From: Dysidea avara
Lineage: Eukaryota; Porifera; Demospongiae; Dictyoceratida; Dysideidae
DNA: 64,000 nt
Reading direction: 5' to 3'
NCBI RefSeq assembly: GCF_963678975.1
Contig: NC_089282.1
Location: 1-64,000, forward strand
Positions 1 to 47,314 of this stretch are shown in pieces. Within the stretch, counting starts at the first letter, position 1, and the number at the start of each line of letters is the position of its first letter. The position numbers and the translations under genes were made by a program. The notes beneath the pieces were generated by a model that was not told the DNA's origin, searched no databases, and was given only the letters and a program-made list of their open reading frames with translations.

Positions 1-1188
1 CCTAACCCTAACCCTAACCCTAACCCTAACCCTAACCCCTAACCCTAACCCTAACCCTAACCCTAACCCTAACCCTAACCCTAACCCTAACCCTAACCCT
101 AACCCTAACCCTAACCCTAACCCTAACCCTAACCCTAACCCTAACCCTAACCCTAACCCTAACCCTAACCCTAACCCTAACCCTAACCCTAACCCTAACC
201 CTAACCCTAACCCTAACCCTAACCCTAACCCTAACCCTAACCCTAACCCTAACCCTAACCCTAACCCTAACCCTAACCCTAACCCTAACCCTAACCCTAA
301 CCCTAACCCTAACCCTAACCCTAACCCTAACCCTAACCCTAACCCTAACCCTAACCCTAACCCTAACCCTAACCCTAACCCTAACCCTAACCCTAACCCT
401 AACCCTAACCCTAACCCTAACCCTAACCCTAACCCTAACCCTAACCCTAACCCTAACCCTAACCCTAACCCTAACCCTAACCCTAACCCTAACCCTAACC
501 CTAACCCTAACCCTAACCCTAACCCTAACCCTAACCCTAACCCTAACCCTAACCCTAACCCTAACCCTAACCCTAACCCTAACCCTAACCCTAACCCTAA
601 CCCTAACCCTAACCCTAACCCTAACCCTAACCCTAACCCTAACCCTAACCCTAACCCTAACCCTAACCCTAACCCTAACCCTAACCCTAACCCTAACCCT
701 AACCCTAACCCTAACCCTAACCCTAACCCTAACCCTAACCCTAACCCTAACCCTAACCCTAACCCTAACCCTAACCCTAACCCTAACCCTAACCCTAACC
801 CTAACCCTAACCCTAACCCTAACCCTAACCCTAACCCTAACCCTAACCCTAACCCTAACCCTAACCCTAACCCTAACCCTAACCCTAACCCTAACCCTAA
901 CCCTAACCCTAACCCTAACCCTAACCCTAACCCTAACCCTAACCCTAACCCTAACCCTAACCCTAACCCTAACCCTAACCCTAACCCTAACCCTAACCCT
1001 AACCCTAACCCTAACCCTAACCCTAACCCTAACCCTAACCCTAACCCTAACCCTAACCCTAACCCTAACCCTAACCCTAACCCTAACCCTAACCCTAACC
1101 CTAACCCTAACCCTAACCCTAACCCTAACCCTAACCCTAACCCTAACCCTAACCCTAACCCTAACCCTAACCCTAACCCTAACCCTAA
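1..1188. repeat. Terminal telomere array (CCCTAA)n
   Basis: About 198 head-to-tail CCCTAA units run from the first base to 1188, with a single slip (one extra C) near 35-40. The C-rich strand reads 5'->3' from the left edge, the orientation expected for a left chromosome end, so the window starts at a true telomere. The array stops abruptly at CCCTAA|GGCTGTACC. The near-perfect homogeneity shows active telomere maintenance of the TTAGGG type. Confidence 0.98.
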
Positions 1189-1466
1189 GGCTGTACCACC
1201 AGAAACGTTTCAAAGTTGGCGGACCATCTTATGAAGCTACACAGTAGTTTAACCACCGAGGAGAGACACCATTATTTAAAACTGGGAAGACAGCACGGAC
1301 ACCGTGTAAGTAGTTACTTTTCAATTATGTAACTATTTCAAGTAATTATTATTTTTGTACCAGCCTCCAGGTGTCAAAATTCAACAGGCAATTCGAAGGG
1401 TATTACAATACATCAATTTTATACAGTATTTATTACATTTACCATAACATATAGGCTAGGACACCA
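1189..1466 (+). promoter_or_regulatory. Telomere-proximal leader of the first YR gene
   Basis: This 278-bp stretch lies between the telomere and the first coding exon. No TATA box is evident. A GTGTAAGT donor-like site near 1302 could end an untranslated first exon. It also marks the left boundary of the first subtelomeric unit. The promoter role is inferred from position only. Confidence 0.35.
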
Positions 1467-3555
1467 ATGATGCCAGGTACCCTTACCCAAACAACATTAC
1501 CTAGCATATGCAGCAGCAACATGGTAAACTAAATGTTTATATATACATGTCAAGTTACTTACATGATGACCATAGCCTGCTGGATCAATGACTATGGCTG
1601 TTCAAGCATCACCACCTCAACTTCTTCAATCTAACAACACAGTAAGTTGGAATTTATATTAGTATTTTACTTACGTAAATAGACACAGAGTGCCAGTTTC
1701 TCAACTGTTCCTAAAGTTCCTCAACCTAACAACACGGTACGTAAGTTAGAATTTTTATTAGTATTTGACTTACAACTTACATAAATAGACACAACTGGTT
1801 GTACAGTGTGCCGGAGTCTCCACTGTTCCTCAAGTTCCTCGACCTAACAACATGGTACGTAAGTTAGCATTTTTATTAGTATTTGACTTACAACTTATGT
1901 AAATAGACTCAAATTGTTAAACAGACTACCGGCTTGTCCACTGCTCCTCAAGTTCCTCAATCCAACAGCATGGTAGGTTAGACATCCTTTAGAGCTTGTA
2001 TACCTGTAATTATTGTTGTACTGTAGGGTATCATCGAATCAATGGCTACAGCTGCTCCAGTACCTGCATTCCAAAGGTCTATGGAAAGTAACAGCATGGT
2101 AAGGCTGAACTCTACAGCTGTATAACACTAATTGATTGATGATGCTCACAGGATCAACCAGCCACCCCTTGCACGATGACTGCTACTCATAGTAAATCAT
2201 CCAATGATTACAACCTGGTAAGATTAAGTACATTTTGTGATTGCATAGTTTTATACACCGTCATCCACAACAGCCTAAAGAATTTGACTATGAAGGCTTC
2301 CAAACATATTTAAAGGTGTCATACAGCAAAAATCCAACTACTGCAAAATCCATAGCAAGGGATGTCAACTTGTACCTCGGCAGAGCAGAAGGAAGCAATT
2401 GCGATATTTTGAAGCTTCTAAACATAACAGAGCTTGAAAGGTTTATGGAAATAATGAAGGACCCGAAGCAACTGAAATTCAAGCCAAGCACACGGAAAGA
2501 GAAGCTGAACAGAATTAAATTAGCAATAAAATTTGCTAAACGCAGTATTGATGATGCACAGCTGTACTACAAGGCAAACAGGGTCATCGATTCCATCGAG
2601 GAATGGGTTCATGGGCTCAACAAAGATGTGAGTCTACAGAAACAAGAACGTGGCCTAGTAGTGAGAGAGATTTTACCACATCTGCAAGACCCGAACGAAT
2701 TTTTGAATGACCAGGAGGTATAAATATATGCCGACTCTCCGATTGTTATTAAATTGTGATATACATATGTAGGTAAAGGCTAAGCTAAGCAAGGCATTTG
2801 AGAATGCTTCCAGTGGACATTGTAACAAAGAAGAAATCGATACAATAACTGCATATGCAGCAGCAGCCACCATTTATGGAAATGGGCAGAGGTCAGGAGC
2901 TATTTCAAACCTCACCGTCGCAGAATTTGAAATGCGCGAGGAGAGCTATAGTGAAGAATCAGGAGATATGGTGGTTATTCCATGTGTACACCATAATACA
3001 GGGTCACAGGGGCTGGCTTATCTAGTGATTAGTGAGGAAGTTGATGACATGATACAATACTACCATGACAACATACGGCAGATGATTACTCCTGCAGCCA
3101 ATTGTGAACATTACCTCTTCTTGACTCGAAGTGGTGAACAATATGATCAGGTGTATCGACGAATCAAAAACACATTAGGGACAAAGTCTATGACTCCACC
3201 TCAGCCTGGTTTATACAGAGTGCTGATTTCCAGTGAGGCTAGACGTCACCTAGATGAAATGAAGAGACGCAAGACAGTAAAACACCTCAGTCACAGTGCA
3301 CAGACAAGTGAGACATACTATGAATATATGAACAATGTTGATGCCACAGAGGCACACGCAAACATCCGCACTCTATCTGCACTGCGACGGTGGAAGCAGC
3401 ATGAGGCAAAGCTTTTGACATCTAGATGGCCTCTATCTGGTGACCCTCCAGCTATTAAAGATATAAGAAATTTCATTAAAGAAAATCATATCACAAGAAC
3501 ATCAAAAGAGATTTTAGCCAAATGGCAACAGCTTCATAATAGTGAATATATTTAA
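1467..3555 (+). CDS. Tyrosine recombinase-like protein, subtelomeric copy 1 (9 exons)
   Basis: Proposed exons are 1467-1523, 1576-1641, 1689-1736, 1807-1854, 1925-1972, 2027-2098, 2152-2217, 2274-2717 and 2773-3555. Every junction is GT-AG and phase 0, giving 543 aa. Exons 1-7 are short, Ser/Pro/Asn-rich and repetitive; three are exactly 48 nt. Exon 8 is a helical N-terminal domain resembling the DNA-binding domain of YRs. Exon 9 holds the catalytic domain: box I Arg in YGNGQRSG, a Lys-like beta-hairpin (HHNTG where the sister copy has HHKTG), an Arg in LYRVL in place of HxxR, and KHLSHSAQT..ETYY carrying the late His and the Tyr nucleophile. The layout matches YRs of the Crypton or phage-integrase type. 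The start was chosen because the first exon opens with MM and ends in the same SSNM/donor context as later exons. The family call is by motif; the function is inferred. Confidence 0.72.
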
Positions 3556-3744
3556 TGTGAATGTACCTGTGCATTGTACAGTACGTGGTAACTTATTATT
3601 GCGACAGTTTCAAACTTACACAATATTATATCCACATGAAGTGCATGATACCTCATTGCATGACAGCGTGTGCCTGGTGTATCAGAATTCTGTCATGAGT
3701 TAATTCAGGAAGCGATTAACTGGGAGGGGGGGTCCATGAAACCC

Positions 3745-3870
3745 TTTTACCCCACCCCTGCCTTGTTGATGGTGTTCACAGGGTTGACCAGTCTCCAATT
3801 TCTCCAATGTTGAACAGCAAATGATGAAATGTCAACATATAAAGAGGGTAAAGGGTGAAGTTTCTATAGA
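3745..3870 (+). pseudogene. Degenerate YR exon-7 relic
   Basis: The stretch GATGGTGTTCACAGGGTTGACCAG near 3769 mirrors the acceptor and start of exon 7 of YR copy 1 (GATGATGCTCACAG then GATCAACCAG). No open frame survives. It probably remains from tandem duplication of the YR unit. Confidence 0.5.
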
Positions 3871-3910
3871 TTTTTCAATACGTCCAGTGTCCAAAGGGTG
3901 GTCCACAATC

Positions 3911-4428
3911 GTCTTCCAGTCAATATAACCTGGCTATCTAAAACGGTCACAAATGGTCACAGGGACCAGTGACTAAAACTGACATCTACGTTTATTTCCA
4001 ATACAGAGGTAGGGTACAAAATCAATGCCCTCTTCAATGCAGTATGGAGAAGTTGTAGAAGTACTTAGCAGTAAAAAAAGGACACCTGTATGGGATGAAA
4101 AATGTTGACATATAAAGGCAGCATCAAGACAAAAATCACAGACAGAAGCTTAAGGCACATATATAGATAGACCTCAAGCTCAATGTACTAAGTCTATATA
4201 TGCTGAATTTAAAATAATTATTAAGCCTATGGTTTGTATTTTACATTATGTAGCACATAACTTGCATATTGTGTACATTAAGAAAACTAAACTGGCGTAC
4301 GTACGCAGTAAACCGCCTCTTAGGGTGATAGATCGCCACACATGTATGCTACAATGATAATACAGCAAGCTGCTAATATTAAAAGCGTGCTTGATGCTAT
4401 TTACGTACTCACTTGTCCTTCCAACCGT
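3911..4428. repeat. Subtelomeric repeat of about 520 bp, copy 1
   Basis: It runs from TCTTCCAGTCAATATAACC to CTTGTCCTTCCAACCGT. It contains CGGTCACAAATGGTCACAG near its start, echoing the ATGGTCRCA motifs at the element 3' ends, and CGCCTCTTAGGGTGATAG near its end. Copy 2 follows almost directly and is nearly identical over its length. Confidence 0.85.
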
Positions 4429-4444
4429 CTTCCAGTCAACTTCA

Positions 4445-4963
4445 TCTTCCAGTCAATGTATAACCTGGCTATCTAAAACGGTCACAAATGGTCACAGGGA
4501 CCAGTGACTAAAACTGACATCTACGTTCATTTCCAATACGGAGGTAGGGTACAAAATCAATGCCCTCTTCACTGCAGTATGGAGAGGTTGTAGAAGTACT
4601 TAGCAGTAAAAAAAGGACACCTGTATGGGATGAAAAATGTTGACATATAAAGGCAGCATCAAGACAAAAATCACAGACAGAAGCTTAAGGCACATATATA
4701 GATAGACCTCAAGCTCAATGTACTAAGTCTATATATGCTGAATTTAAAATAATTATTAAGCCTACGGTTTGTATTTTACATTATGTAGCACATAACTTGC
4801 ATATTGTGTACATTAAGAAAACTAAACTGGCGTACGTACGCAGTAAACCGCCTCTTAGGGTGATAGATCGCCACACATGTATGCTACAATGATAATACAG
4901 CAAGCTGCTAATATTAAAAGCGTGCTTGATGTTATTTACGTACTCACTTGTCCTTCCAACCGT
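4445..4963. repeat. Subtelomeric repeat of about 520 bp, copy 2
   Basis: This is in direct tandem with copy 1 and nearly identical to it, with differences at only a few bases (for example GATGTTATT for GATGCTATT). The closeness suggests recent duplication or conversion. Confidence 0.85.
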
Positions 4964-5040
4964 AGAAGCCCACTATCAATTTGAAGGGTAGTGTTACATG
5001 TGTATGGTTATCTGACTTACATGTACAGCGCAGAGTCCCT

Positions 5041-5107
5041 ACTTCATTACTACTACTGCTGCTCCAGCATACGCATATATACCAAGGGTTCAGGGAAGTA
5101 ATAGCAT
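5041..5107 (+). pseudogene. Orphan YR exon-6-like fragment
   Basis: The stretch preceding TAATAGCATG|GTAAAT encodes a Thr/Ala/Pro-rich piece ending in SNSM. This is the same ending and donor context as exon 6 of YR copy 1, with an AG acceptor at the left. It is flanked by the repeats, not by a readable gene, so it is best read as a relic of another YR copy. Confidence 0.55.
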
Positions 5108-5379
5108 GGTAAATTAGAACTCTATAACATTTAAAGCATACCTTTTCAGGGGCAGATCCAGACATTTTAAAAGGGGGTTCCACACTGGAATTGCAACTTC
5201 AGCCTAATTGTAAGTGTAAGACCAGAAAAAATGGTCATCACCTGCTGACAATAGTTGCCTGCTATGTTGCTCCTCTTAAGAATACTGTGACTGCTCTATT
5301 AGAGTGTCTCGAGTAAGAGAGGCTCTTTTAAAAGGGGGGTGGGGTTCCATGACACCCTTTAACCCCCCCTCACCCCTGG

Positions 5380-5505
5380 ATCAGCCCCTCCTTATTGATG
5401 ATGTTCACAGGGTTGACCAGCGTCCAATCCAATCTGTCCAATGTTGAATAGCAAAGGATGTCAGTTTGTACCTCAGTAGAGCTGTTTAAATTTTTCTGTG
5501 GATTT
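5380..5505 (+). pseudogene. Degenerate YR exon-7/8 relic
   Basis: TGATGATGTTCACAGGGTTG resembles the exon-7 acceptor. The following GCAAAGGATGTCAGTTTG then TACCTCAGTAGAGC resembles exon 8 of copy 1 (GCAAGGGATGTCAACTTG then TACCTCGGCAGAGC). The frame is not maintained. Together with 5041-5107 this marks a decayed YR unit. Confidence 0.6.
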
Positions 5506-5540
5506 TTCAATACATCTAGTGTGCAAAGGGTGGTTCACAA

Positions 5541-6064
5541 TCGTCTTCCAGTCAATATATAACCTGGCTATCTAAAACGGTCACAAATGGTCACAGGGAC
5601 CAGTGACTAAAACTGACATCTATGTTCATTTCCAATACAGAGGTATATAGGGTACAAAATCAATGCACTCTTCACTGCAGTGCGGAGAGTTTGTAGAAGT
5701 ACCTAGCAGTAAAAAGAGGACACCTGTATGGGATGAAAATGTCAACATATAAAGGTGGCATCAAGACAAAAATCACAGACAGAAGCTTAAGGCACATATA
5801 TAGATAGACCTCAAGCTCAATGTACTAAGTCTATATATGTTGAATTTAAAATAATTATTAAGCCTATGGTTTGTATTTTACATTATGTAGCACATAACTT
5901 GCATATTGTGTACATTAAGAAAACTAAACTGGGGTACGTACGCAGTAAACCGCCTCTTAGGGTGATAGATCGCCACACATGTATGCTACAATAATAATAC
6001 AGCAAGCTGCTAATAGTAAAAGCGTGCTTGATGCTATTTACGTACTCACTTGTCCTTCCAACCG
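5541..6064. repeat. Subtelomeric repeat of about 520 bp, copy 3
   Basis: Same family as 3911-4428 and 4445-4963, somewhat more diverged. It is separated from copy 2 by the orphan YR exon fragments, so the repeat and the YR pieces were duplicated as one larger unit. Confidence 0.85.
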
Positions 6065-6306
6065 TAGAGGCCCACTATCATTTTGAATGTAAGCAGCTGG
6101 GGCTACACGTGGCTGCCGTTTTATGTTTTTACATGGCACGTGATTCTAACCGGCTGATAATTTTACGTTGCTTTAATTTTAACGGTTAAACATACGTGAA
6201 ATTTCCAACCGACTAGCTATACCTAAGGGTGCTTTGCTAAGAGCTGTGCTCAACTATGGTCAAATCTAAAACCTGTATACTGGCACCAGCAGGCTACCAC
6301 ACGCAG

Positions 6307-6329
6307 TGACGTCAAATATAATGACGTAA
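6307..6329. promoter_or_regulatory. Paired CRE-like sites upstream of YR gene 2
   Basis: TGACGTCA at 6307-6314 and TGACGTAA at 6322-6329 lie about 310-345 bp upstream of the proposed start codons of YR gene 2. CRE/ATF sites are common in animal promoters; activity here is inferred. Confidence 0.4.
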
Positions 6330-6673
6330 TTAGTAACCAAGAGCATGCGTGACGCGCATATGTTGACATGATTCCAGCAACATAAACCACGTCTAGTACA
6401 GGTAGAAATAGTGATGTTCTCGCTTCGTATGTGCATCCTAGAATTGGGTTATTGTTTCCTAAAACTACTCATTTTAGCCAGCTTTGTGTAATATACTGTG
6501 AATCTATTCAGGCATTTAACAAGCCTGACAATTGCCTACATAAAACAGGATATTGCAAGAGAAAATACTTTTTTTATGCATCATTGGGAATTCATATAAG
6601 ACTAAAAGCTTTAATTTGTACTTTAGTGACTCTACTGATGAATTTTACTCTAAATAATGATGTCCACAAAGAT

Positions 6674-9405
6674 ATGGCTGATTCAGAACCAGACTTTTCT
6701 TCTAAAAGGTGTGACAAGCAGCCAAGCAAGTGTGAAACAGGCCAGCAAAAATTGGTATGATTGCTATATAGCTGTGTAATGTTCAACGTATGTAACTACA
6801 TTTGATAGTTATACCACATGTTTAATTCTATACAGGTTAGCTCACATCTGCCAAGCAGTAACAGTTTTCTCTTAGTAAGCACATCAATTGTTACAATAAA
6901 CATCTATCATTATTATTCCACATATATTCAGGAAACAAACAGAGTTCTCTCAGAACTCCAGCCACCGCTGTCTGATGACTTTAATTTCAAAGGTTTTATG
7001 GCATACATTTTGACCACAGCTGGAGTAAGTAGGAATAAGGCAACTGCAAATTCTATTGTGTTGGATCTGATCCGCTTTTATGAAGTAACAACACAATCAT
7101 CCAAGGACTGCTTTGGCAAGATAGACACACTACTAACCAGATCCAACCTGGAGGCATTCCTAGAGTACATCAGAGAAGAAAAGTATTATAAACCAGCAGC
7201 AATTACTGAACAAATATGGAGACTACAATTTGCTATTAAATACATCATGGATCTAACTAACAGAAAAGACTACTACACTAGAGGAAGCCATTTGCTGAAA
7301 CTGTTAACAGATCAGAATCTTTCACTGTCACATAAAGCCAGCAAACGGCAAAGTAGAAGCATTGAAAAATGGTCATGTGTTGAAAGTGAAAAAGTGAGGG
7401 AGTAATGTGTGTGATATTATGTTAAATTTCTGGTCACACGTAATATATTTTATATAATACATATGCAGTATACACATCATACAGTATGTCACATGCATAT
7501 AGATATGTGCATTTAGTCAGTGATATTATACATTATGATGGTAATGTAGGTTAATGGACCAAAAGGAGATATATCCATGGCAGAGACGCATAAAATATTA
7601 CCACCTTTATGCAGCTCAAGTGATACTTCTACATCATCCAATGCACAAAGTAGCCAAGAAAAAAGAATAGTACAATATTCGGTATAGTATTAAGTGTTTC
7701 TCTGGCCAATTGTAATATTCTCACCTGCACAGGATGCTTTAGCTGCAATACAATCCATATATGATGACTCAAATGAAAGTGATGCCAGCACAGATGATGC
7801 TAATAACATTAGTCCTGTGATCACAAGCACAAGCACCGAGAGCATTATGTCAGATACAGTAAGAATAGTCATCGTATTTAGATGTGTACTCTTTGTGACT
7901 GTATCATGTAGGCAAGCACTGGGACACAAACAAGCATATGGTCAAGTGATGACAGCACTTCCATTTGCAGTGATGAATCAAACAGTGATGACAATCATCA
8001 ATTTACTTCTGATGCAGGTGGTGATATTTCCATCATTGACAATGATATAGGAAGCAAAGGTCCATCAAACTTTGACTTAATACATGGAGTGAAAGACTGC
8101 AATGTGCAGCTTCAAAATTATAAATTCAATTTTACTGGCTTTGCAAGATATTTAGAGGGTATTGCAGGAGGAAACAGAAATAAAGACGCTTCAAAAGCTA
8201 TTGTCCGTGATGTCCAAATGTTTTTTCAGGCAACACCAGCCACATCTAACAGTGACATTGATCGATTATTCAATAAATCAAATCTTGAAATGTTTTTTCA
8301 AAAACTCTTATCTGACAGGGAGTACAAACCCACCACTTTATCAGAGAAAATACGACGCATGAAGCTGGCAATAAAGTATGTGATCCATGCTGAGGATTCC
8401 ATGATGACAAATAAAGAGCTATTTATTAAAGGAAGTAGATTGCTAGAGTTATTGACACAGTGGTGCCTTTCTCTGTCCAAAGCAATTGCATTACAGCGAC
8501 AACAGCATTCTCTCACAATCACTGAACAATTACCGTTAGTGTTGGATCCACAGGAATTCTTAGAAAATAGAAAGGTATGGAGTAAAACAGTGATCATGGT
8601 TACAACTGATCAAATCATTTTTATACTTCTACAGGTTCAACATAACGTGCAAGAAGCAAGAACAGTATTGGGTGAAGGATTTGATAAACCAGCTGCTAAA
8701 ATTCTGACTGCATATGCTGCTGCATGCGTAGTCTATGGAAATGGACAAAGGTCTGGAGTTGTTACAAATTTGAGGATTGTAGAATTCAACCAACGCCAAC
8801 CATGTGATCATGAAACTGATAAAGTGGTGATAAATTGCCTGCACCATAAGACTGGACCTCAGGGGATTGCACATCTAGTAGTGACTCGTGATATTGAACA
8901 GTTGTTGGTTGACTATTACAACAAAGTTCGGCGGAAGATAAGGACATTTAACTTTTCTAATTCAAACAGATTTTTCCTAACAACCAATGGCTCTCTTTAT
9001 ACACAAGTGTATCGTAGAATGAAGGAGGCTCTATCTGTAGGACGTTTAAAACCTCCCAGGCCAAAAGACTACAGAATTTTGGTAGCCACAGATGCTGCAA
9101 GGGAGCTGAATGATGCAGATTTAAGAAGAGTAGCAAAACACCTTTGCCACAGTACAGAAACAAGTAGGCGATATTACCAGTTTAGCAACACAAATGATTC
9201 ATTGCTGGCTCATCAAGCTCTACAAAATCTTTCTGAAAGACAAAAATGGTCTACACAACACATCACAGCGTTGCTTAAAGAGTGGCCACTAAGCAATAGT
9301 CCACCAGGTTTAATGGTGTGTAGAGAGATTGCCAAGAACTATAAAATGAATCGAACTGGAAAGGATGTTCTGGACAAATGGAGACAATTGCAAAAATCTC
9401 TTTAG
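6674..9405 (+). CDS. Tyrosine recombinase-like protein, subtelomeric copy 2, with duplicated N-terminal domain
   Basis: Proposed exons are 6674-6754, 6836-6874, 6932-7393, 7550-7681, 7733-7858, 7912-8574 and 8635-9405. All are phase 0, giving 757 aa; an in-frame upstream ATG at 6638 is an alternative start. The exon at 6932-7393 carries a helical domain (FNFKGFMAYI to QNLSLS) paralogous to the one in 7912-8574 (FNFTGFARYL to WCLSLS), so the N-terminal domain occurs twice before a single catalytic domain. An Asp/Ser-rich linker (exons 7550-7858) separates them. Catalytic features are all present: YGNGQRSG (box I Arg), HHKTG (Lys), KDYRILVATDAA (Arg of the HxxR position) and HLCHSTETSRRYY (His and Tyr). 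The last intron matches YR copy 1 in position and phase. At 60 nt it is a multiple of three with no in-frame stop, so unspliced RNA would also be open. The model has no broken frame. Confidence 0.75.
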
Positions 9406-10391
9406 CAATTCCACATTCATGTTCACAGCAATCATTGTATGTAATATTGTGTGCTGAAACTATTATAATTGGAGAGCTGTTTGCAGTAGTACAATTGTTT
9501 AAGTTGGGCTAATTATACTGTCTGCAAGTTTCCACTCTATACATGAGATGTCCATTGTCCTGTACTAAAACAAACAAACAAACAAACAAACAAACAAACA
9601 AAAAAATGTATAAAACGCTGGGCATGTATGGTTAATTTATCAATCTAGAAAGCTAAATGTATAGTATAGATTGTGAGAGCCCTTCAATACAATACATATG
9701 TCATGGTGATCATGCACATTCCAACACAATAACTTTTTAAGAGTTCAGCTTGAATATTCTTAAAAGCTCATGCAATACCCTAATACAACATACACCTATC
9801 ATTAGCATATAGCTAGGTGATTCAAATGTAATATTTATTTTTAATGGATATAAGTGTAATGTATGTTACAGAAGTGTCCAGAAGTGTATTTGGTCTTAAC
9901 TTGCACCACAAAGCCAATTAAAAGCTTACTAAGTGATAACAATTTAATTGTCATAGTAGATTGGTATAAAAACTATGAGTCAAGTAAGTTTGAAAAAATA
10001 TGTGCCCACATACCCTGTTTTTACAGGCCCAGTCACATACAGTGAATGCAATACTTTGGCATGTAGAATCCACTTCACCCTTAAAGATTATTAATGACAT
10101 GCAATTGATTTACTAATGGCATCTACTATCATGACGTGTAGCTAGGATGTCACAGAAATTGTTAGATCAGTACATAAAATTGACTCACAATAGACAGTAA
10201 AAAGTAGCTATGGTTACATGCAAGACAATGGTTAGCACATTTAATGAGTGCAAACCTATGCTTAATATATATATAATGATCAGTCTGATAAGTAATTTCA
10301 GAAATGTAGCAAAAAAAATTGATTGTATCTAAGTTGACTCACAATAGATATTGAGATGTAGCCTATATGCAAGGACACACTATTAAAAGCT
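9406..10391. other. 3' flank of YR gene 2
   Basis: AT-rich sequence without a readable gene. It includes an (AAAC)n microsatellite at about 9569-9605. I see nothing else assignable. Confidence 0.5.
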
Positions 10392-10531
10392 AATGGTCGC
10401 AACTGGCTAAGTATCCTTGGAATGGTCAAAAATGGTCGCAAATACTTTCTAAATGGTCGCAATGGTCACCTGTAACGTATTTAATGGTCGCAAATGGTTT
10501 GATTTTTTTTTAAATGGTCGCATGTCCGGGG
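10392..10531. promoter_or_regulatory. ATGGTCRCA motif cluster and element 3' end (unit 1)
   Basis: ATGGTC-type motifs begin at 10393, 10422, 10432, 10453, 10462, 10484 and 10514; five continue as GCA. The cluster ends in GTCCGGGGCC, which abuts four CCCTAA repeats. The same arrangement recurs at 11895-12027, so it defines a conserved 3' terminus. By analogy with arm sites of other YR systems the motifs could be recombinase-binding sites; that is inference. Confidence 0.65.
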
Positions 10532-10555
10532 CCCTAACCCTAACCCTAACCCTAA
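10532..10555. repeat. Interstitial telomeric repeat (CCCTAA)4
   Basis: Four perfect CCCTAA units in the same orientation as the chromosome-end telomere. The left side joins CGGGGCC and the right side joins GGCATTGC inside the truncated YR coding sequence. The tract therefore separates two stacked units. Confidence 0.95.
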
Positions 10556-11098
10556 GGCATTGCACGGCTGGTGGTGACACGTGACATTGAACAATTACTT
10601 TATGAATACTACACACATGCTCGACTGAAAATACGAGCCAAAGAATTTACAAATTCTAATAGATTTTTCCTGACTACAACTGGCTTTCTATATACACAAG
10701 TATACAGAAGAATAAAAGAGGCTTTATCCATAGAAAATCTAAAGCCACCTAGGCCTAAAGATTACAGGATAATGGTTGCAACGGATGCGGCAAGAGAGCT
10801 GAATGATGTAGATTTACGAAGAGTAGCAAAACATCTATGTCACAGCACAGAAACAAGCAGGCAATACTATGAATTTAGCAACAATAATGATATGGTGCTT
10901 GCTCATCAAGCCCTTTGCAACCTCTCGAAAAAACGAAAATGGTCTAAGCAGCATATAACAGCACTGCTTAAAGAATGGCCATTAACCAACAGCCCACCTG
11001 GTTTAGCAGTGTGCAGAGAGATATCAAGAAAACATCACATGAGCAGAACTGGAAAGTAAGTATTGGACAAGTGGAGGCAATTAAAGAAGACAATGTAG
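10556..11098 (+). pseudogene. 5'-truncated tyrosine recombinase copy 3
   Basis: The frame enters at GIARLVVTRDIEQLL, which aligns with the middle of the YR copy 2 catalytic domain. Box I and everything upstream are missing. The KDYR motif and the HLCHSTETSRQYY block with its late His and Tyr remain. A TAA at 11057-11059 replaces an Asp codon, after which the family ending (LDKWRQLKK) still follows to 11098. The 5' edge is fused directly to interstitial telomere repeats, as expected if a chromosome end eroded into the gene and was healed. Confidence 0.85.
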
Positions 11099-11894
11099 TT
11101 GATATGTATGGAGTTTTACAAATACATACTTAAGAATTATTGTGAAGTATTCACTTGACACTCTGCTCTGAACTAAATTCATAGAATTGTAAAACAGTTA
11201 AAGATTATGCATTGTTGTGCACTGAGCTTTATAAGATTGATGTACTCTAATAGAACAGTCAGCAAAGTATTTGGTATACTCTAATAGAGTCCTCGATATG
11301 CATGCAGCTATCTAAGAGTAGCTTAGGGCACTTTGTGGCACAACTGAGCATAATAGGGGAATTTGAGTTGCCAATAGTCTTGCCTAACACAAAGTGCATT
11401 ATACATATACGTAGCTATGTTTTATGGGTTAAGTTGAATCCTATTAATCACTGAGAGATAGAATTACACAAATACTTTAAGTTTGGCTCATTTGTAGCTA
11501 GCAACAATCAAGAATCATTCCATACAAATTTCTCCTCTTGGGAAGCCACAAAAGTGCACAGCCTGTTACGACCTTGTTATGGATCCAAACTATATATATA
11601 TATATACACATATATATATCTCTTTTGGTCCACTGTTGCTCTACTAACATGTAGCTAATATTTATTTAAATTGGTAGGCATGATGTATTGCAGAAGCGAA
11701 TTTGCTACAATGGCTAATCACACGCTCATGCAAGTAGGAGGGTCTTACCGAGTAGGAGGAAAAAATTTGATTAACAGCCTGTCTGGGATGTGGCTAACAA
11801 CCATTCATTCACTATTGGCATTAACTATGATGTACATACAGATATACTGCATGTATCAAAAAGCATTTGGTCAAGATACCTTTGGTGGTTTTGG
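11099..11894. other. 3' flank of truncated YR copy
   Basis: No gene seen. It contains an AT microsatellite at about 11590-11618 and two ACTCTAATAGA stretches near 11244 and 11278 that recur elsewhere in the window. Similarity to the 3' flank of YR gene 2 is not obvious until the motif cluster. Confidence 0.45.
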
Positions 11895-12025
11895 AATGGT
11901 CGCAGTGGTCACAAAAAAATTTTAAATGGTCGCAAAACAACATTTAGATGGTCATAGTGGTCACAGATTTTGCATTAAATGGTCACAAATAGCAAGAATT
12001 AAAGAGATGGTCATCAAGTTCGGGG
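11895..12025. promoter_or_regulatory. ATGGTCRCA motif cluster and element 3' end (unit 2)
   Basis: RTGGTC motifs begin at 11896, 11906, 11926, 11948, 11957, 11979 and 12007. They are followed by AGTTCGGGGCC and then telomere-like repeats. This repeats the architecture at 10392-10531 although the spacer sequence has diverged, supporting selection on the motifs and on the CGGGGCC end. Confidence 0.6.
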
Positions 12026-12043
12026 CCATAACCCTAACCCTAA
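12026..12043. repeat. Interstitial telomeric repeat, short
   Basis: CCATAA followed by two CCCTAA units, in telomeric orientation. It directly follows CGGGGC and precedes a minisatellite. It marks the inner edge of the second stacked unit. Confidence 0.9.
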
Positions 12044-12657
12044 GTAAATGAGCCAAGAGTGTGTTGCGTGTTCTATTACAGTAAATGAGCCAAGAGTGTG
12101 TTGCGTGTTCTATTACAGTAAATGAGCCAAGAATGTGTTGTGTTCTATTACAGTAAATGAGCCAAGAGTGTGTTGTGTTCTATCAGAGTAAATGAGCCAA
12201 GAATGTGTTGCATGTTCTATTACAGTAAATGAGCCAAGAATGTGTTGTGTTCTATCAGAGCAAATGAGCCAAGAATGTGTTGCGTGTTCTATTACAGTAA
12301 ATGAGCCAAGAATGTGTTGTGTTCTATCAGAGTAGATGAGCCAAGAATGTGTTGCGTGTTCTATTACAGTAAATGAGCCAAGAATGTGTTGTGTTCTATC
12401 AGAGCAAATGAGCCAAGAATGTGTTGCGTGTTCTATTACAGTAAATGAGCCAAGAGTGTGTTGTGTTCTATCAGAGTAAATGAACCAAGAATGTGTTGCA
12501 TGTTCTATTACAGTAAATGAGCCAAGAGTGTGTTGTGTTCTATCAGAGTAAATGAGCCAAGAATGTGTTGCATGTTCTATTACAGTAAATGAGCCAAGAA
12601 TGTGGTGTGTTCTATTAGAGTAAATGAGCCAAGAATGTGTTGTGTGTTCTATTAGAG
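12044..12657. repeat. Minisatellite, 35/37-bp units
   Basis: About 17 tandem units of the form GTAAATGAGCCAAGAATGTG plus TTGCGTGTTCTATTACA (37 bp), alternating with a 35-bp version ending GTGTTCTATCAGA. The alternation gives a higher-order dimer. It starts exactly where the interstitial telomeric tract ends. Confidence 0.93.
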
Positions 12658-13015
12658 TAAAATTTAAGAGTTAGGGCATCAACCTTGTGTCCCTGAGGTG
12701 TCCCTTGAAACCAGATTACAAAACAAAGATTAGTCACATTTCTCTGTTGCTTTTATTGTTTAATGCTGTATTTTCAGTGTATAATGAAGAGTTTCTTAAA
12801 TAGTAAAAGTATTTAAGGTACAATAGAACACAGTTTATTTTGGCTCATGTACTCACACGATGCTCAAACAACTGCTATTCAGGCACTCCATGTACAAGAA
12901 CAGCAATAAATGCCCATATATTTATTTGTGGTAAGACACTTAATTGCCATTATAATTGCAACTGGAATTAGCCATTACTTAATTTTCAAAATAACTATTC
13001 TCTAATGAAGTCTCC
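12658..13015 (-). terminator. EPRS1 3'UTR and polyadenylation region
   Basis: This is non-coding sequence downstream of the EPRS1 stop on the minus strand. AATAAA on the minus strand (TTTATT at 12834-12839) lies about 180 nt past the stop and is a plausible poly(A) signal. The exact cleavage site cannot be read. Confidence 0.5.
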
Positions 13016-41985
<28,970 letters not shown>

Positions 41986-45348: not shown

Positions 45349-46338
45349 TTATCCATAAATCTGGCAATGATGTACATATTGTTGACAATCATCAGGAGTG
45401 ACAGAAGCAATAGCTGCAGCTATGCATGTCTCTAGGTCAACAACACCACTATGCAATGTACTCTCCATACATTTCAAAACGGTCTTGACTTTAGAGAAAG
45501 CCTCTTCTATGGGGTTATAGTCAGGAGAATATGGTGGCAGAAAGTGCACCATAACCCCAACTTCTCTCAACAATCCTGTAACATCACTACAATGGTGAAT
45601 TGCACAATTATCCATAATAACAATGCTATTTGGATTTGTTCCATTGAAATTCATCAGCATCGGAAGTAAACCTTCAATGAAGTCCTTGAATTCATCGGAA
45701 TCTACTGTGTCCTTAGTAAGTTTGTAATCCAGAATACCAGTGGTCGTCATCGCTACAATGGCTGATACACGTTGACCACGACATGTAAGTTTGTGTGAAG
45801 TGATCGGTTTACCCCTGACACTGTATCCATATTTCCTTAAACTATCCCTCATATCTGTACCAGTTTCATCCACAAACACCAACATACTTGAATCATACAA
45901 ACTTACATCTACTGCAAATGTTTCCCTTAAATGTTTATCTTGCCTGGCAGCTACAATCTTCATTTTCTGTCTGGTAAATCCACTCTTCTTTAAAAACTGA
46001 CACAACGTAGACTGGTGTACATTGACACCATACACACGACTTAATTCTTCCTGTACTTCCCTCAAATACGCACCTGGCTTATGCATCAACATGTTTAATA
46101 TAACTGCTTCCACAGGCTTGGTTAGCTTTAACACTCGGCAGTCCTTTGGATATTCTTTCTTACTTACACTACCGCCACTTGCATTGAACCGTTTCATGAT
46201 TCTAAACACAGTTGAAGGGTCTACGCAGAGATTGGAAGCGGTGGATTTATCATCCATCCCTAAAGCCAACTTATGCCACACGATCCTCCATCGTAGATCA
46301 TCCGAGTAAGCAGAGCACCTGCTTCTTTCAATAGACAT
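45349..46338 (-). CDS. Tc1/mariner (IS630)-type DDE transposase, intact
   Basis: The start was placed at 46338 (MSIERSRCSAYS), giving 329 aa; the frame stays open upstream to 46458. An N-terminal helix-turn-helix (DLRWRIVWHKLALGM, DPSTVFRIMKRFN) is followed by the catalytic domain: VFVDETGTDMRD (first Asp), IVIMDNCAIHH (second Asp) and PPYSPDYNPIEEAFS (Glu). I count 34 residues between the second Asp and the Glu, a DD34E triad as in Tc1-type enzymes. The frame has no disruption, unlike nearly every other transposon gene in the window. No terminal inverted repeats were found around it, so it may be active, recently dead, or domesticated. Confidence 0.88.
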   Translation of the reverse strand: MSIERSRCSAYSDDLRWRIVWHKLALGMDDKSTASNLCVDPSTVFRIMKRFNASGGSVSKKEYPKDCRVLKLTKPVEAVILNMLMHKPGAYLREVQEELSRVYGVNVHQSTLCQFLKKSGFTRQKMKIVAARQDKHLRETFAVDVSLYDSSMLVFVDETGTDMRDSLRKYGYSVRGKPITSHKLTCRGQRVSAIVAMTTTGILDYKLTKDTVDSDEFKDFIEGLLPMLMNFNGTNPNSIVIMDNCAIHHCSDVTGLLREVGVMVHFLPPYSPDYNPIEEAFSKVKTVLKCMESTLHSGVVDLETCIAAAIASVTPDDCQQYVHHCQIYG

Positions 46339-47314
46339 TATCACGTGACAATTCAAATGTTTCCTTGGTAACTTGGTTTTCGTTTTTAAGTTTATTGCAA
46401 GATTCCGTAAAATCCCTGTATAATATCTATGGTTATGTACAAACATCCTACGGATCACGTGATCACTATATCAACCACAAAACACGTAATACCGGAAACT
46501 ATATTGTGGCAAGTGTACAGGACACCGCTCTTCATGCTTGATGTTGTTAATAGGACAGTTCCAGCTACTTAGCCTCCCCAGTTCAGATGTAAATATTGTT
46601 AAAACATGTGACTACTGGCGGAGATCATCAAGGTGAGATTTCACACACAGAGTACCAGTACCTGAATCAATGTACCAGGCAGTACTTAATAATCTCTCTG
46701 CACCTTACACTGTGCCACAATCAAAATACACCAGCAAAAGAAAGTCAGATAGTTGGTTGTCAATGTTTCCTGGGGATCAGGCACCTAGCCTCCATGGATT
46801 GTTCTTACACACCTTAATGTAGTAGGGATCAAACAAATACCACAACAAAGGGTAGTCACACCTATACTGTCAGTTGAATTCAAAATTTGATCAAGGGGCT
46901 GTTGTACAGTGAATCAAGCAATCAAGATGTCCCGGAAAATGCACCTTTGAAAGTAACTTTATTTGGCGACATGAGAATGTACTAGGCTTTTATGGTTGAC
47001 AAATGCTCATATAGGGAGAAATCAAGGAAAAAAATTCAACTAATTCAAAAAAAATGCCAACCTGCTAGATGGTACGCTATTCACATATGTAGTGAGTGTG
47101 TGTGTGTGCTTGTGCATACGCATAAAACAGATATCGATGATCCTAGCTTGTTCACTATAATGCCATGAGCTGGATTTACTATTGGATATAACCTGTGTTA
47201 CTATTAATGGCTAGTAATGTTTATTATTATTATTATTTGTTTACTGTATAGAAACCTCCATATGGAGTATATAGTACAACAGATTAAATTAAGAATAAAT
47301 TGTAGTGATTGTAC
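46339..47314. other. Gene-free stretch
   Basis: The first 150 bp probably hold the transposase leader, including ATCACGTGAT near 46455. A (GT)n tract lies near 47093-47110 and a (TTA)n tract near 47219-47237. No gene recognised. Confidence 0.45.

What the first reader, a model, noticed from the sequence alone, without database searches (positions are those of the whole stretch)
1189..12043. Stacked telomere-bounded units carrying tyrosine recombinase genes
Seen: a YR gene family occurs three times in the first 11 kb, and the zone is divided by CCCTAA tracts all in telomeric orientation. Unit 1 (1189-10531) is flanked by telomeric repeats on both sides; unit 2 (10556-12025) likewise. Known: YR elements such as Cryptons integrate by recombination between a circular form and a short matching site. 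Inference: these are DNA elements that use the telomeric repeat as their integration site and pile up at the chromosome end. That would be a recombinase-based counterpart of telomere-targeted retrotransposons. I do not know of a description matching this exactly.
Basis: partly seen in the sequence, partly recalled or inferred. Interest (0 to 1): 0.88.

Follow-up and report, generated by a model that had tools for sequence, protein, structure and literature searches.

The report
Recombinase elements stacked at sponge telomere
At one chromosome end of a marine sponge, DNA units that carry tyrosine-recombinase genes lie within the telomere repeats, and their recombinases end in a DNA-binding-type domain with some likeness to that of a telomere-binding protein, so they may be mobile elements that live in telomeres, though copies elsewhere in the genome could not be examined.

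Summary
A 1.2 kb CCCTAA tract opens the window; two more CCCTAA tracts in the same orientation (24 and 18 bp) bracket a 9.3 kb and a 1.5 kb unit. The genes are divergent tyrosine recombinases (YRs): conserved catalytic residues, confident AlphaFold model, collinear alignment to XerC/XerD; curated families support this only weakly. Unit 2 is not a second complete unit but a 5'-truncated relic of an anciently diverged relative, cut mid-gene by telomere repeats. Both units share a 3' tail ending in CGGGG, set against telomere repeats, conserved although synonymous sites are saturated and the rest of the 3' flank is not alignable. New here: the recombinases end in a Myb-like domain; one of two profiles of it ranks TRF2, a telomere-repeat binder, first among solved structures (E about 0.1, not significant). 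Best reading: a DNA element using telomere repeats as attachment site through a Myb-fused recombinase. Main rival: a Y'-like subtelomeric block spread by recombination. Telomere-specific YRs are already known in endogenous nimaviruses of crustaceans, so this is a new variant of a known kind. The genome-wide test could not be run.

The parts
1..1188 (+). terminal telomere tract (CCCTAA)n, chromosome end
   Evidence: TRF: 197.8 copies, 99% match
1189..10531 (+). unit 1: recombinase-carrying unit, 5' end GGCTGTACC next to CCCTAA, 3' end CGGGG next to CCCTAA
   Evidence: sequence, junctions
1685..1975 (+). tandem 118-bp exon-like repeats in the 5' part of gene A (2.5 copies)
   Evidence: TRF, direct repeats D8, D9, D13
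2241..2717 (+). gene A, exon with core-binding domain (reading frame opens at 2241; exact exon start not determined)
   Evidence: ORF, blastp to homologues
2718..2772 (+). gene A intron (GT...AG, 55 bp, not a multiple of three, holds an in-frame stop)
   Evidence: sequence
2773..3555 (+). gene A, last exon: catalytic YR domain plus C-terminal Myb-like domain; Asn at the position of the active-site Lys that is invariant in the 65 homologues
3907..6080 (+). three copies of a ~535-bp repeat, each with GGTCACA motifs near its start
   Evidence: direct repeats D2, D3, D6, D7, motif scan
6809..7405 (+). gene B: reading frame for an N-terminal (core-binding) half only of a related recombinase
   Evidence: ORF, about 34-43% identity to N-halves of C-type homologues
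7912..8574 (+). gene C, exon with acidic N-terminus and core-binding domain
8575..8634 (+). gene C probable intron (GT...AG, 60 bp, in frame without stop); absent from the D. avara protein P0002, matched by in-frame inserts of other sequence at the same place in P0003 and P0004
8635..9405 (+). gene C, last exon: catalytic YR domain (R, K, R, H, Y present) plus Myb-like C-terminal domain (9238-9402)
10390..10531 (+). 3' tail of unit 1: seven TGGTC sites, terminal CGGGG
10532..10555 (+). internal telomere tract, four CCCTAA repeats
10556..12025 (+). unit 2: 5'-truncated relic of a related unit
10556..11098 (+). C-type recombinase gene fragment (pseudogene; in-frame TAA at 11057-11059), nearest protein found P0072 (94% over 129 aa)
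11890..12025 (+). 3' tail of unit 2: seven TGGTC sites, terminal CGGGG
12026..12043 (+). internal telomere tract CCATAA CCCTAA CCCTAA
12043..12661 (+). subtelomeric satellite (72-bp period, alternating 35 and 37) on which the stack rests

Best explanation
These are copies of a DNA mobile element that lives in telomere repeats of a sponge (Dysidea avara or a near relative). The element carries two tyrosine-recombinase genes (types A and C), each with a C-terminal Myb-like domain. The proposed cycle is: the Myb domain brings the recombinase to TTAGGG/CCCTAA repeats; the recombinase joins the element's 3' tail (TGGTC sites and terminal CGGGG) to a telomere repeat, using CCCTAA as the short identical sequence at both ends of the unit; later chromosome shortening and telomerase healing truncate the outermost copy from its 5' side; new copies then enter the distal telomere tract and leave short internal tracts between units. 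Shown: the anatomy, the shared conserved 3' terminus, the truncation, the conserved YR residues, purifying selection on the gene, and no other enzyme domain that Pfam can see in unit 1. Inferred: Myb-guided targeting, the recombination step, a circular intermediate, mobility as such.
For: YR: in 65 homologues H190, K191, R266 and Y300 (P0002 numbering) are among ten invariant columns and R158, H288, H291 are at least 90%; AlphaFold2 pLDDT 91.6, pTM 0.83; Pfam Phage_integrase in 5 of 65 members at E up to 0.1, best 2.7e-4; profile alignment collinear with XerC+XerD, E 0.0075, and with four known recombinases, E 0.0085, where R158, R266, H291 and Y300 fall on the catalytic residues, against a best of 0.021 in 10 controls. 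Targeting module: at E up to 1, 15 of 25 C-terminal domains match Myb_DNA-bind_4 (best 1.2e-4) and 14 of 25 Myb_DNA-binding (best 7.6e-4), 15 of 15 and 11 of 15 in the C and third clades; profile A6 against 177,635 PDB sequences gives seven hits at E up to 10, the first six all TRF2 Myb. Defined 3' end: tails align with score 48, 0 of 1000 shuffles reach it, while the rest of the 3' flank (975 and 784 bp) scores 30, within 100 shuffles (mean 24.9, maximum 33), although the genes differ by dS about 2.3 (saturated) with dN 0.14. Seven TGGTC sites in each tail, helically phased (random fraction 0.029 and 0.013). DNA rather than RNA copying: gene A's 55-bp intron is present in unit 1, tails do not fold better than shuffles, no Pfam domain at E up to 0.01 in six frames of unit 1 by a scan that does find the RT of a DIRS-like element nearby. 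Two-gene unit: of 22 shared-contig-length groups among 159 homologues, 12 hold an A and a C type; label shuffles average 6.6 and 43 of 5000 reach 12.
Against: Only one complete unit was seen, so a fixed 5' end is untested. Unit 2's 5' telomere junction is explained by breakage and healing without any recombinase. No 11-bp inverted repeats (spacer 4-9, at least 9 matches) within 100 bp of any of the four junctions. TRF2: E 0.099-0.52 is not significant, the six chains are one protein, profile A6 was put together after the first profile A4 had shown TRF2 only third (E 1.9, behind SKA1 at 0.03 and an ATPase at 0.98), and a single-sequence search found no Myb. For the member shown, both Myb Pfam scores lie below the curated cut-off. 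YR: genes A and C themselves have no Phage_integrase hit; hhalign probabilities are only about 5%, single XerD (E 0.05), lambda Int (0.19) and Cre (0.31) score no better than the best control, and the controls were single sequences while the two best queries were small alignments; PHROGs and NCBIfam gave no integrase. The Pfam scan of unit 1 also misses the recombinases themselves, so it excludes only well-known domains. The TGGTC motif and the 10.5-bp period were chosen after looking. Gene A has Asn in place of the conserved Lys. Gene C's intron is in frame without a stop, so it rests on the P0002 gene model. Genomic positions of other copies unknown.
Confidence: 0.53

Rival explanations
1. 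Subtelomeric block of the Y' type: recombinase-related genes that happen to lie near telomeres are copied between chromosome ends by ordinary recombination between telomere tracts; the recombinases play no part, and internal CCCTAA tracts mark the joins.
For: Stacked units with short telomere tracts between them, all in one orientation, is what end-to-end recombination and healing give. Truncation of unit 2 is explained by breakage and healing. Purifying selection also fits a host gene family.
Against: Two lineages saturated at synonymous sites share the same 3' tail and CGGGG end in the same repeat phase while the sequence between gene and tail has no detectable similarity; random joins would not keep that end. 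The Myb-like domain on the recombinase would be coincidence.
Confidence: 0.25
2. Retroelement of the telomere-attaching kind (Athena/Terminon-like Penelope elements): the 3' end of an RNA primes on the G-strand overhang; copies are 5'-truncated and capped by telomerase; the recombinase genes are passengers.
For: Same polarity (3' end inward), 3' end directly followed by telomere repeats, 5' truncation by short telomere tracts, head-to-tail stacking; these traits are described for Terminons in PMC6431247 (passages; the polarity is recalled). Penelope-like elements can keep introns (recalled).
Against: No reverse transcriptase seen in six frames of unit 1, by a scan that finds a DIRS-like RT elsewhere in the window at 4e-18; no hammerhead match at E up to 5; tails fold no better than shuffles (z +2.28 and -0.10). 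A non-autonomous copy driven by an RT elsewhere is not excluded.
Confidence: 0.12
3. The genes are a domesticated host recombinase or DNA-binding family, not a mobile element, retained near telomeres for a telomere function (compare WOC, a Crypton-derived protein that sits at Drosophila telomeres, PMC3212892, passage).
For: Strong purifying selection, Myb-like domain, A plus C pairing.
Against: Many divergent copies and fragments on many contigs (119 homologues), a pseudogene in unit 2, an N-half-only gene B, and Asn in place of the active-site Lys in gene A: turnover typical of mobile DNA.
Confidence: 0.05

Closest known systems
Telomere-specific endogenous nimaviruses of crustaceans and their telomere-associated tyrosine recombinases (Bao 2020 PMC7016691, passages; Kawato 2023 PMC10871703, abstract and passages)
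   Same: tyrosine recombinase encoded by an element that inserts specifically into telomere repeats; repeats on both sides; no obvious target-site duplication for Nimav-1_LVa; some genes with introns
   Different: viral genomes (majaniviruses 278-401 kb) with nimaviral genes against a 9.3 kb unit; the majaniviral recombinases carry C2H2, SAM-like and arm-binding parts, and the main text names no Myb (0 occurrences); host telomere TAACC against CCCTAA. Whether the recombinases are related was not tested.
Cryptons (Kojima and Jurka 2011 PMC3212892, passages)
   Same: eukaryotic DNA elements whose characteristic enzyme is a tyrosine recombinase, with a fused C-terminal DNA-binding domain in one group, and 5- or 6-bp direct repeats at the ends proposed as recombination substrates
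   Different: Myb-like instead of GCR1_C; two recombinase genes; the direct repeat is the telomere repeat itself. The paper's main text has no word beginning Myb, sponge or Amphimedon; of its telomere passages the one that bears on this is WOC, a Crypton-derived protein at Drosophila telomeres.
Athena/Terminon telomeric Penelope elements of rotifers (PMC6431247, passages)
   Same: 3' end set against telomere repeats, 5' truncation by short telomere tracts, head-to-tail arrays
   Different: no reverse transcriptase found, no hammerhead ribozyme, tail not structured as RNA
HeT-A/TART, TRAS/SART, and yeast Y' elements (recalled; PMC5537684 on HeT-A and TART seen only in a search listing)
   Same: units stacked at chromosome ends; Y' units parted by telomere repeats
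   Different: reverse transcriptases or a helicase, not tyrosine recombinases

Membership tests
Tyrosine recombinase superfamily | catalytic R ... K ... (H/K)xxR ... H ... Y in order | tested here: met
   R158, K191, R266, H291, Y300 conserved in 65 homologues; R158, R266, H291, Y300 in register with XerD R148, R247, H270, Y279, K191 one column off XerD K172 (XerD residue roles recalled); the first His of HxxR is not conserved (K, G, S or C)
Tyrosine recombinase superfamily | core-binding plus catalytic domain fold | tested here: inconclusive
   confident AlphaFold2 model; comparison with solved structures could not be run (fold search never accepted a job)
Tyrosine recombinase superfamily | significant match to a curated family model | tested here: inconclusive
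   Phage_integrase in 5 of 65 members, best 2.7e-4; none for the pieces of genes A and C themselves
Crypton | YR as sole enzyme, no reverse transcriptase or DDE transposase | tested here: met
   six frames of unit 1, no Pfam hit at 0.01; same scan finds an RT at 4e-18 in a control stretch. Excludes well-known domains only.
Crypton | GCR1_C domain (CryptonF group) | tested here: not met
   Pfam scans of the C-terminal domains at E up to 1 list Myb families, no GCR1_C
Crypton | 5- or 6-bp direct repeats at the two ends | tested here: inconclusive
   unit 1 is bracketed by CCCTAA repeats, but in a telomere this cannot be told from the target itself
Crypton | recombinase falls inside the Crypton tree | not tested
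   no Crypton sequences were fetched
Telomere-specific nimavirus | nimaviral core genes on a genome of about 280-400 kb | tested here: not met
   unit 1 is 9.3 kb; its only reading frames of 150 aa or more outside the telomere tract are recombinase pieces, and no Pfam domain is seen. Nimaviral genes were not searched for by name.
Telomere-specific nimavirus | same recombinase family (C2H2, arm-binding) | tested here: inconclusive
   no C2H2 match by Pfam; no sequence comparison made
Terminon/Athena | Penelope-type reverse transcriptase | tested here: not met
   for unit 1, positive control
Terminon/Athena | hammerhead ribozyme before the terminal telomere repeats | tested here: not met
   Rfam at E up to 5 on 1150-12700: three unrelated weak matches, no hammerhead
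Terminon/Athena | 3' end abuts telomere repeats, copies 5'-truncated | tested here: met
   (one truncated copy)
TRF-type telomere-binding Myb (telobox) | profile similarity to TRF1/TRF2 above other Myb domains | tested here: inconclusive
   TRF2 takes ranks 1-6 of 7 PDB hits with profile A6, at E 0.099-0.52; with the earlier, wider profile A4 it is third at E 1.9; none with one sequence
TRF-type telomere-binding Myb (telobox) | binds TTAGGG duplex | not testable with these tools
   bench assay needed

The most novel reading that the evidence does not exclude
A family of small, non-viral, two-recombinase DNA transposons in sponges that targets telomere repeats by a TRF-like Myb domain fused to the tyrosine recombinase, using the host telomere repeat as its own recombination core and surviving end erosion by stacking outward: a recombinase counterpart of telomeric retrotransposons, with targeting borrowed from, or convergent on, shelterin.
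Probability: 0.34. Interest if true: 0.8.

Novelty: new variant of a known kind. Interest (0 to 1): 0.62.

Why it matters
If true, telomeres are colonised by a further sort of mobile DNA beside retroelements and viruses, with a readable targeting device (recombinase plus telomere-type Myb) that can be tested directly in vitro. It would give a compact natural recombinase that acts on TTAGGG repeats, and sponge chromosome ends as a place to see telomerase healing and mobile DNA in turn. It also offers a non-viral comparison for the telomere-specific nimaviruses, of whose integration PMC7016691 says that little is known of the mechanism.

Tried and rejected
Rejected: unit 2 as a second complete unit (it starts mid-gene). 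A LINE-like retrotransposon copied from spliced mRNA (gene A intron present, no RT found). A Terminon (no RT, no ribozyme, unstructured tail). DIRS-type: units carry no RT, although DIRS-like elements lie elsewhere in the window. Canonical YR core sites: none found at the junctions.

Led nowhere: viral-contig scans with P0002, A2 and the junction pattern and genome-contig scans gave no relative (7, 23 and 32 pattern stretches, none confirmed; none at all in 37 and 38; the tool says that the window's own genome may be left out); PHROGs and NCBIfam on the 8 rows of A2 gave nothing useful; PDB sequence searches with P0001 and A3 gave no recombinase. The whole-genome question was asked 23 times in the same form (genome search own) and never answered. 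Fold search was busy 14 times (58, 65, 71, 77, 82, 87, 90, 92, 95, 101, 105, 108, 112, 116) and closed; a second structure prediction (C-terminal domain alone) was busy at 59, 66, 72, 86 and closed at 137.

Choices made by hand or after looking: the 25 rows of A4 were picked from the 47 of 65 A3 rows that show the C-terminal domain, plus gene A; the 15 rows of A6 were picked. The TGGTC motif and 10.5-bp period were set. In one search the 1144-bp pair (proteins from different sources) is probably chance; it is left in the 12. The tree has 72 rows: 64 of the 65 A3 rows (P0056, under 220 residues, was dropped), five more homologues (P0065, P0072, P0077, P0078, P0100) and three window pieces; its Myb label was set by a string match.

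Full report
WHERE IT IS. The window starts at a chromosome end: 1188 bases of CCCTAA. The nearest named relative of gene C is an uncharacterised protein of the sponge Dysidea avara (P0002): identical over 118 aa of the N-half and 98.8% identical over 256 aa of the C-half, on a 40.5 Mb contig. The window is therefore taken to be D. avara or a very near relative (inference). A chromosome-level D. avara genome is published (PMC12909245; abstract and passages seen); its main text holds no word beginning telomer or transpos.

ANATOMY. Unit 1 (1189-10531) holds, all on the + strand: gene A (last two exons 2241-2717 and 2773-3555, preceded by tandem 118-bp exon-like repeats at 1685-1975), three ~535-bp repeats (3907-6080), gene B (N-terminal half only, 6809-7405), gene C (7912-8574 and 8635-9405), and a 3' tail (10390-10531). 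Four CCCTAA repeats follow (10532-10555), then unit 2 (10556-12025), then CCATAA plus two CCCTAA (12026-12043), then a 72-bp satellite. The host gene next to the satellite, on the - strand from about 13 kb, carries prolyl-tRNA synthetase domains, so unique chromosome begins here. All tracts and all recombinase genes have one orientation: gene 5' ends face the telomere, 3' ends the chromosome.

UNIT 2 IS A RELIC. Its first base lies inside the recombinase gene (blastn: unit-2 base 1 to window position 8863, 75% over 528 bp). It carries an in-frame TAA. It is not a sister copy of unit 1: between gene C and the fragment, synonymous differences are saturated (dS about 2.3) while dN is 0.14, with differences 31, 22 and 86 at codon positions 1, 2, 3 over 179 codons. 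In the tree it groups with P0072 (support 100/97), 94% identical over 129 aa, apart from gene C. So two old lineages of the same kind have entered this chromosome end.

THE SHARED 3' END. Within the last ~140 bases of both units a stretch of about 100 bases aligns (score 48; 1000 dinucleotide shuffles: mean 17.7, maximum 35), whereas the stretch between gene and tail (975 and 784 bp) scores 30, within 100 shuffles (mean 24.9, maximum 33). Each tail has seven TGGTC sites, spaced 29, 10, 21, 9, 22, 30 and 9, 21, 22, 9, 22, 28; phasing at 10.5 bp is matched by 2.9% and 1.3% of random placements (motif and period chosen after looking). Both end CGGGG and run on as CC[C/A]TAACCC in the same phase. 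A terminus kept through saturated divergence next to the telomere repeat is the main evidence for an element with a defined end. As RNA, all 200 shuffles of the unit-1 tail fold at least as well (z +2.28) and 84 of 200 for unit 2 (z -0.10), so nothing points to a structured RNA end; recognition as DNA is inference.

THE GENES ARE TYROSINE RECOMBINASES. Pfam gives no integrase hit for the window's own pieces. In 65 homologues H190, K191, R266, Y300 are among ten invariant columns and R158, H288, H291 are at least 90%. Five of the 65 match Phage_integrase at E up to 0.1, best 2.7e-4. The AlphaFold2 model of P0002 is confident (pLDDT 91.6, pTM 0.83). With letters fetched from records, hhalign of the 65-row profile gives E 0.0075 (probability 5.2%, 278 columns) with XerC+XerD and E 0.0085 (4.7%, 306 columns) with XerC, XerD, Cre and lambda Int together; in the latter the alignment is collinear and sets R158, K263, R266, H291, Y300 on XerD's R148, H244, R247, H270, Y279, with K191 one column off K172 (XerD roles recalled). 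Ten unrelated E. coli proteins give E 0.021 (yigB, 96 columns) to 0.87; single XerC gives 0.013, XerD 0.05, lambda Int 0.19, Cre 0.31, so single sequences barely part from controls. I take YR as well supported but remote. Gene C has all five positions; gene A has Asn in place of the Lys.

A MYB-LIKE DOMAIN AT THE C-TERMINUS. After the catalytic Tyr the model has a separate three-helix domain (326-335, 345-354, 361-374). Scanned alone at E up to 1, 25 hand-picked domains give Myb_DNA-bind_4 in 15 (best 1.2e-4) and Myb_DNA-binding in 14 (best 7.6e-4); 15 domains of the C and third clades give 15 and 11. The first profile, of the 25, ranks SKA1 (0.03), an ATPase (0.98) and TRF2 Myb (1.9) in the PDB. 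A second profile, of 15 rows from the clades that keep the DKWR-type helix, chosen after that result, returns seven hits, the first six all TRF2 Myb (E 0.099-0.52), aligned over profile positions 30-53, RTGKNILDKWRQLKK on RTAVMIKDRWRTMKR. One sequence alone finds no Myb. So the domain is Myb-like with fair confidence; TRF-like is a lead, not a result. In the tree (72 rows) the domain marks the A clade (17 rows), the C clade (29 rows) and a third clade (7 rows), a few cut rows aside; a clade of 18 rows lacks it. Those 18 would be the natural comparison: do they sit away from telomeres?

A TWO-GENE UNIT. Homologues sort into A (52), C (67), a third Myb-bearing type (7) and Myb-less (33) (159 proteins). 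Five of the 12 are contigs under 13 kb other than the doubtful 1144-bp pair (5941, 8229, 9351, 9536, 12261), close to the spacing seen here.

NO OTHER ENZYME SEEN. Six frames of unit 1 with stops as X give no Pfam match at 0.01. The same kind of scan on a control stretch of equal length (three frames) finds the RT of a DIRS-like element (4e-18) and the prolyl-tRNA synthetase gene, so an ordinary RT would have shown; the scan misses the recombinases themselves, so unfamiliar domains may hide. Rfam gives no hammerhead at E up to 5. Gene A has a 55-bp GT-AG intron with an in-frame stop. Gene C's 60-bp GT-AG stretch (8575-8634) is absent from P0002, and P0003 and P0004 have in-frame inserts at the same place; it is probably an intron, but being in frame it could also be read through.

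MECHANISM. Most likely: Myb-guided recombination of an element end into a telomere repeat, with CCCTAA itself as the short shared sequence, then erosion from the outside and telomerase healing, then new copies further out. The steps after anatomy are inference. The rival that needs least is the Y' kind: blocks copied between ends by recombination in telomere tracts. What tips me to the element is the conserved terminus and the fused DNA-binding-type domain. A telomere-attaching retroelement fits the polarity and truncation (compare Terminons, PMC6431247, passages) but no RT, ribozyme or RNA structure was found.

KNOWN OR NEW. Telomere-specific tyrosine recombinases are in print: Bao 2020 (PMC7016691, passages) found an endogenous nimavirus flanked by (TAACC)n, with no obvious target-site duplication and the boundary undetermined; Kawato 2023 (PMC10871703, abstract and passages) tied such insertion to a recombinase family distinct from DIRS and Cryptons. 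Kojima and Jurka 2011 (PMC3212892, passages) note that WOC, derived from a Crypton, sits at telomeres. Of ten searches of the open library, six bear on whether a non-viral element of this kind or a Myb-fused recombinase at telomeres is described; none of the listed titles or opening lines does so. I saw only passages of a few papers, and the library lacks most subscription papers. Hence: new variant of a known kind.

LIMITS. One chromosome end, one complete unit. The own-genome search was asked 23 times without an answer; structure comparison was never accepted. Misassembly at the two short internal tracts cannot be excluded without reads.

Noticed in passing
window 16710-20595 (-) and 35944-39234 (+): Two DIRS-like retroelements: an RVT_1 reverse transcriptase on the first (4e-19; 4e-18), and on both pieces that look like a DIRS recombinase (recalled resemblance). 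The reading frames are broken. No blastn match to the telomeric units.
   Followed up: partly
window 12800-15400 (-): Intron-rich host gene with prolyl-tRNA synthetase domains (ProRS-C_1 2.7e-12, HGTP_anticodon 2.2e-4) starts right after the satellite, about 13 kb from the chromosome end.
   Followed up: partly
window 45349-46470 (-): Uninterrupted 373-aa transposase with DDE_3 (1e-26) and HTH_23: a Tc1/mariner-like element.
   Followed up: partly
window 1685-1975: A 118-bp exon-plus-intron-like unit is repeated in tandem (2.5 copies) at the start of gene A.
   Followed up: no
window 3907-6080: Three ~535-bp repeats with GGTCACA motifs like those of the 3' tails; they may be remnants of older element ends inside unit 1.
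   Followed up: no
window 6809-7405: Gene B codes for a core-binding half only and stops; it may act as a partner or be a relic.
   Followed up: no
homologues P0006, P0007, P0009, P0011, P0014-P0018 and others: A clade of 18 recombinases without the Myb-like tail, a natural control for the telomere-targeting idea.
   Followed up: partly
window 12043-12661: Satellite with alternating 35 and 37-bp spacing directly under the telomeric stack.
   Followed up: no
window 24359-26035: Long minisatellite, 77 copies of a 21-bp unit.
   Followed up: no
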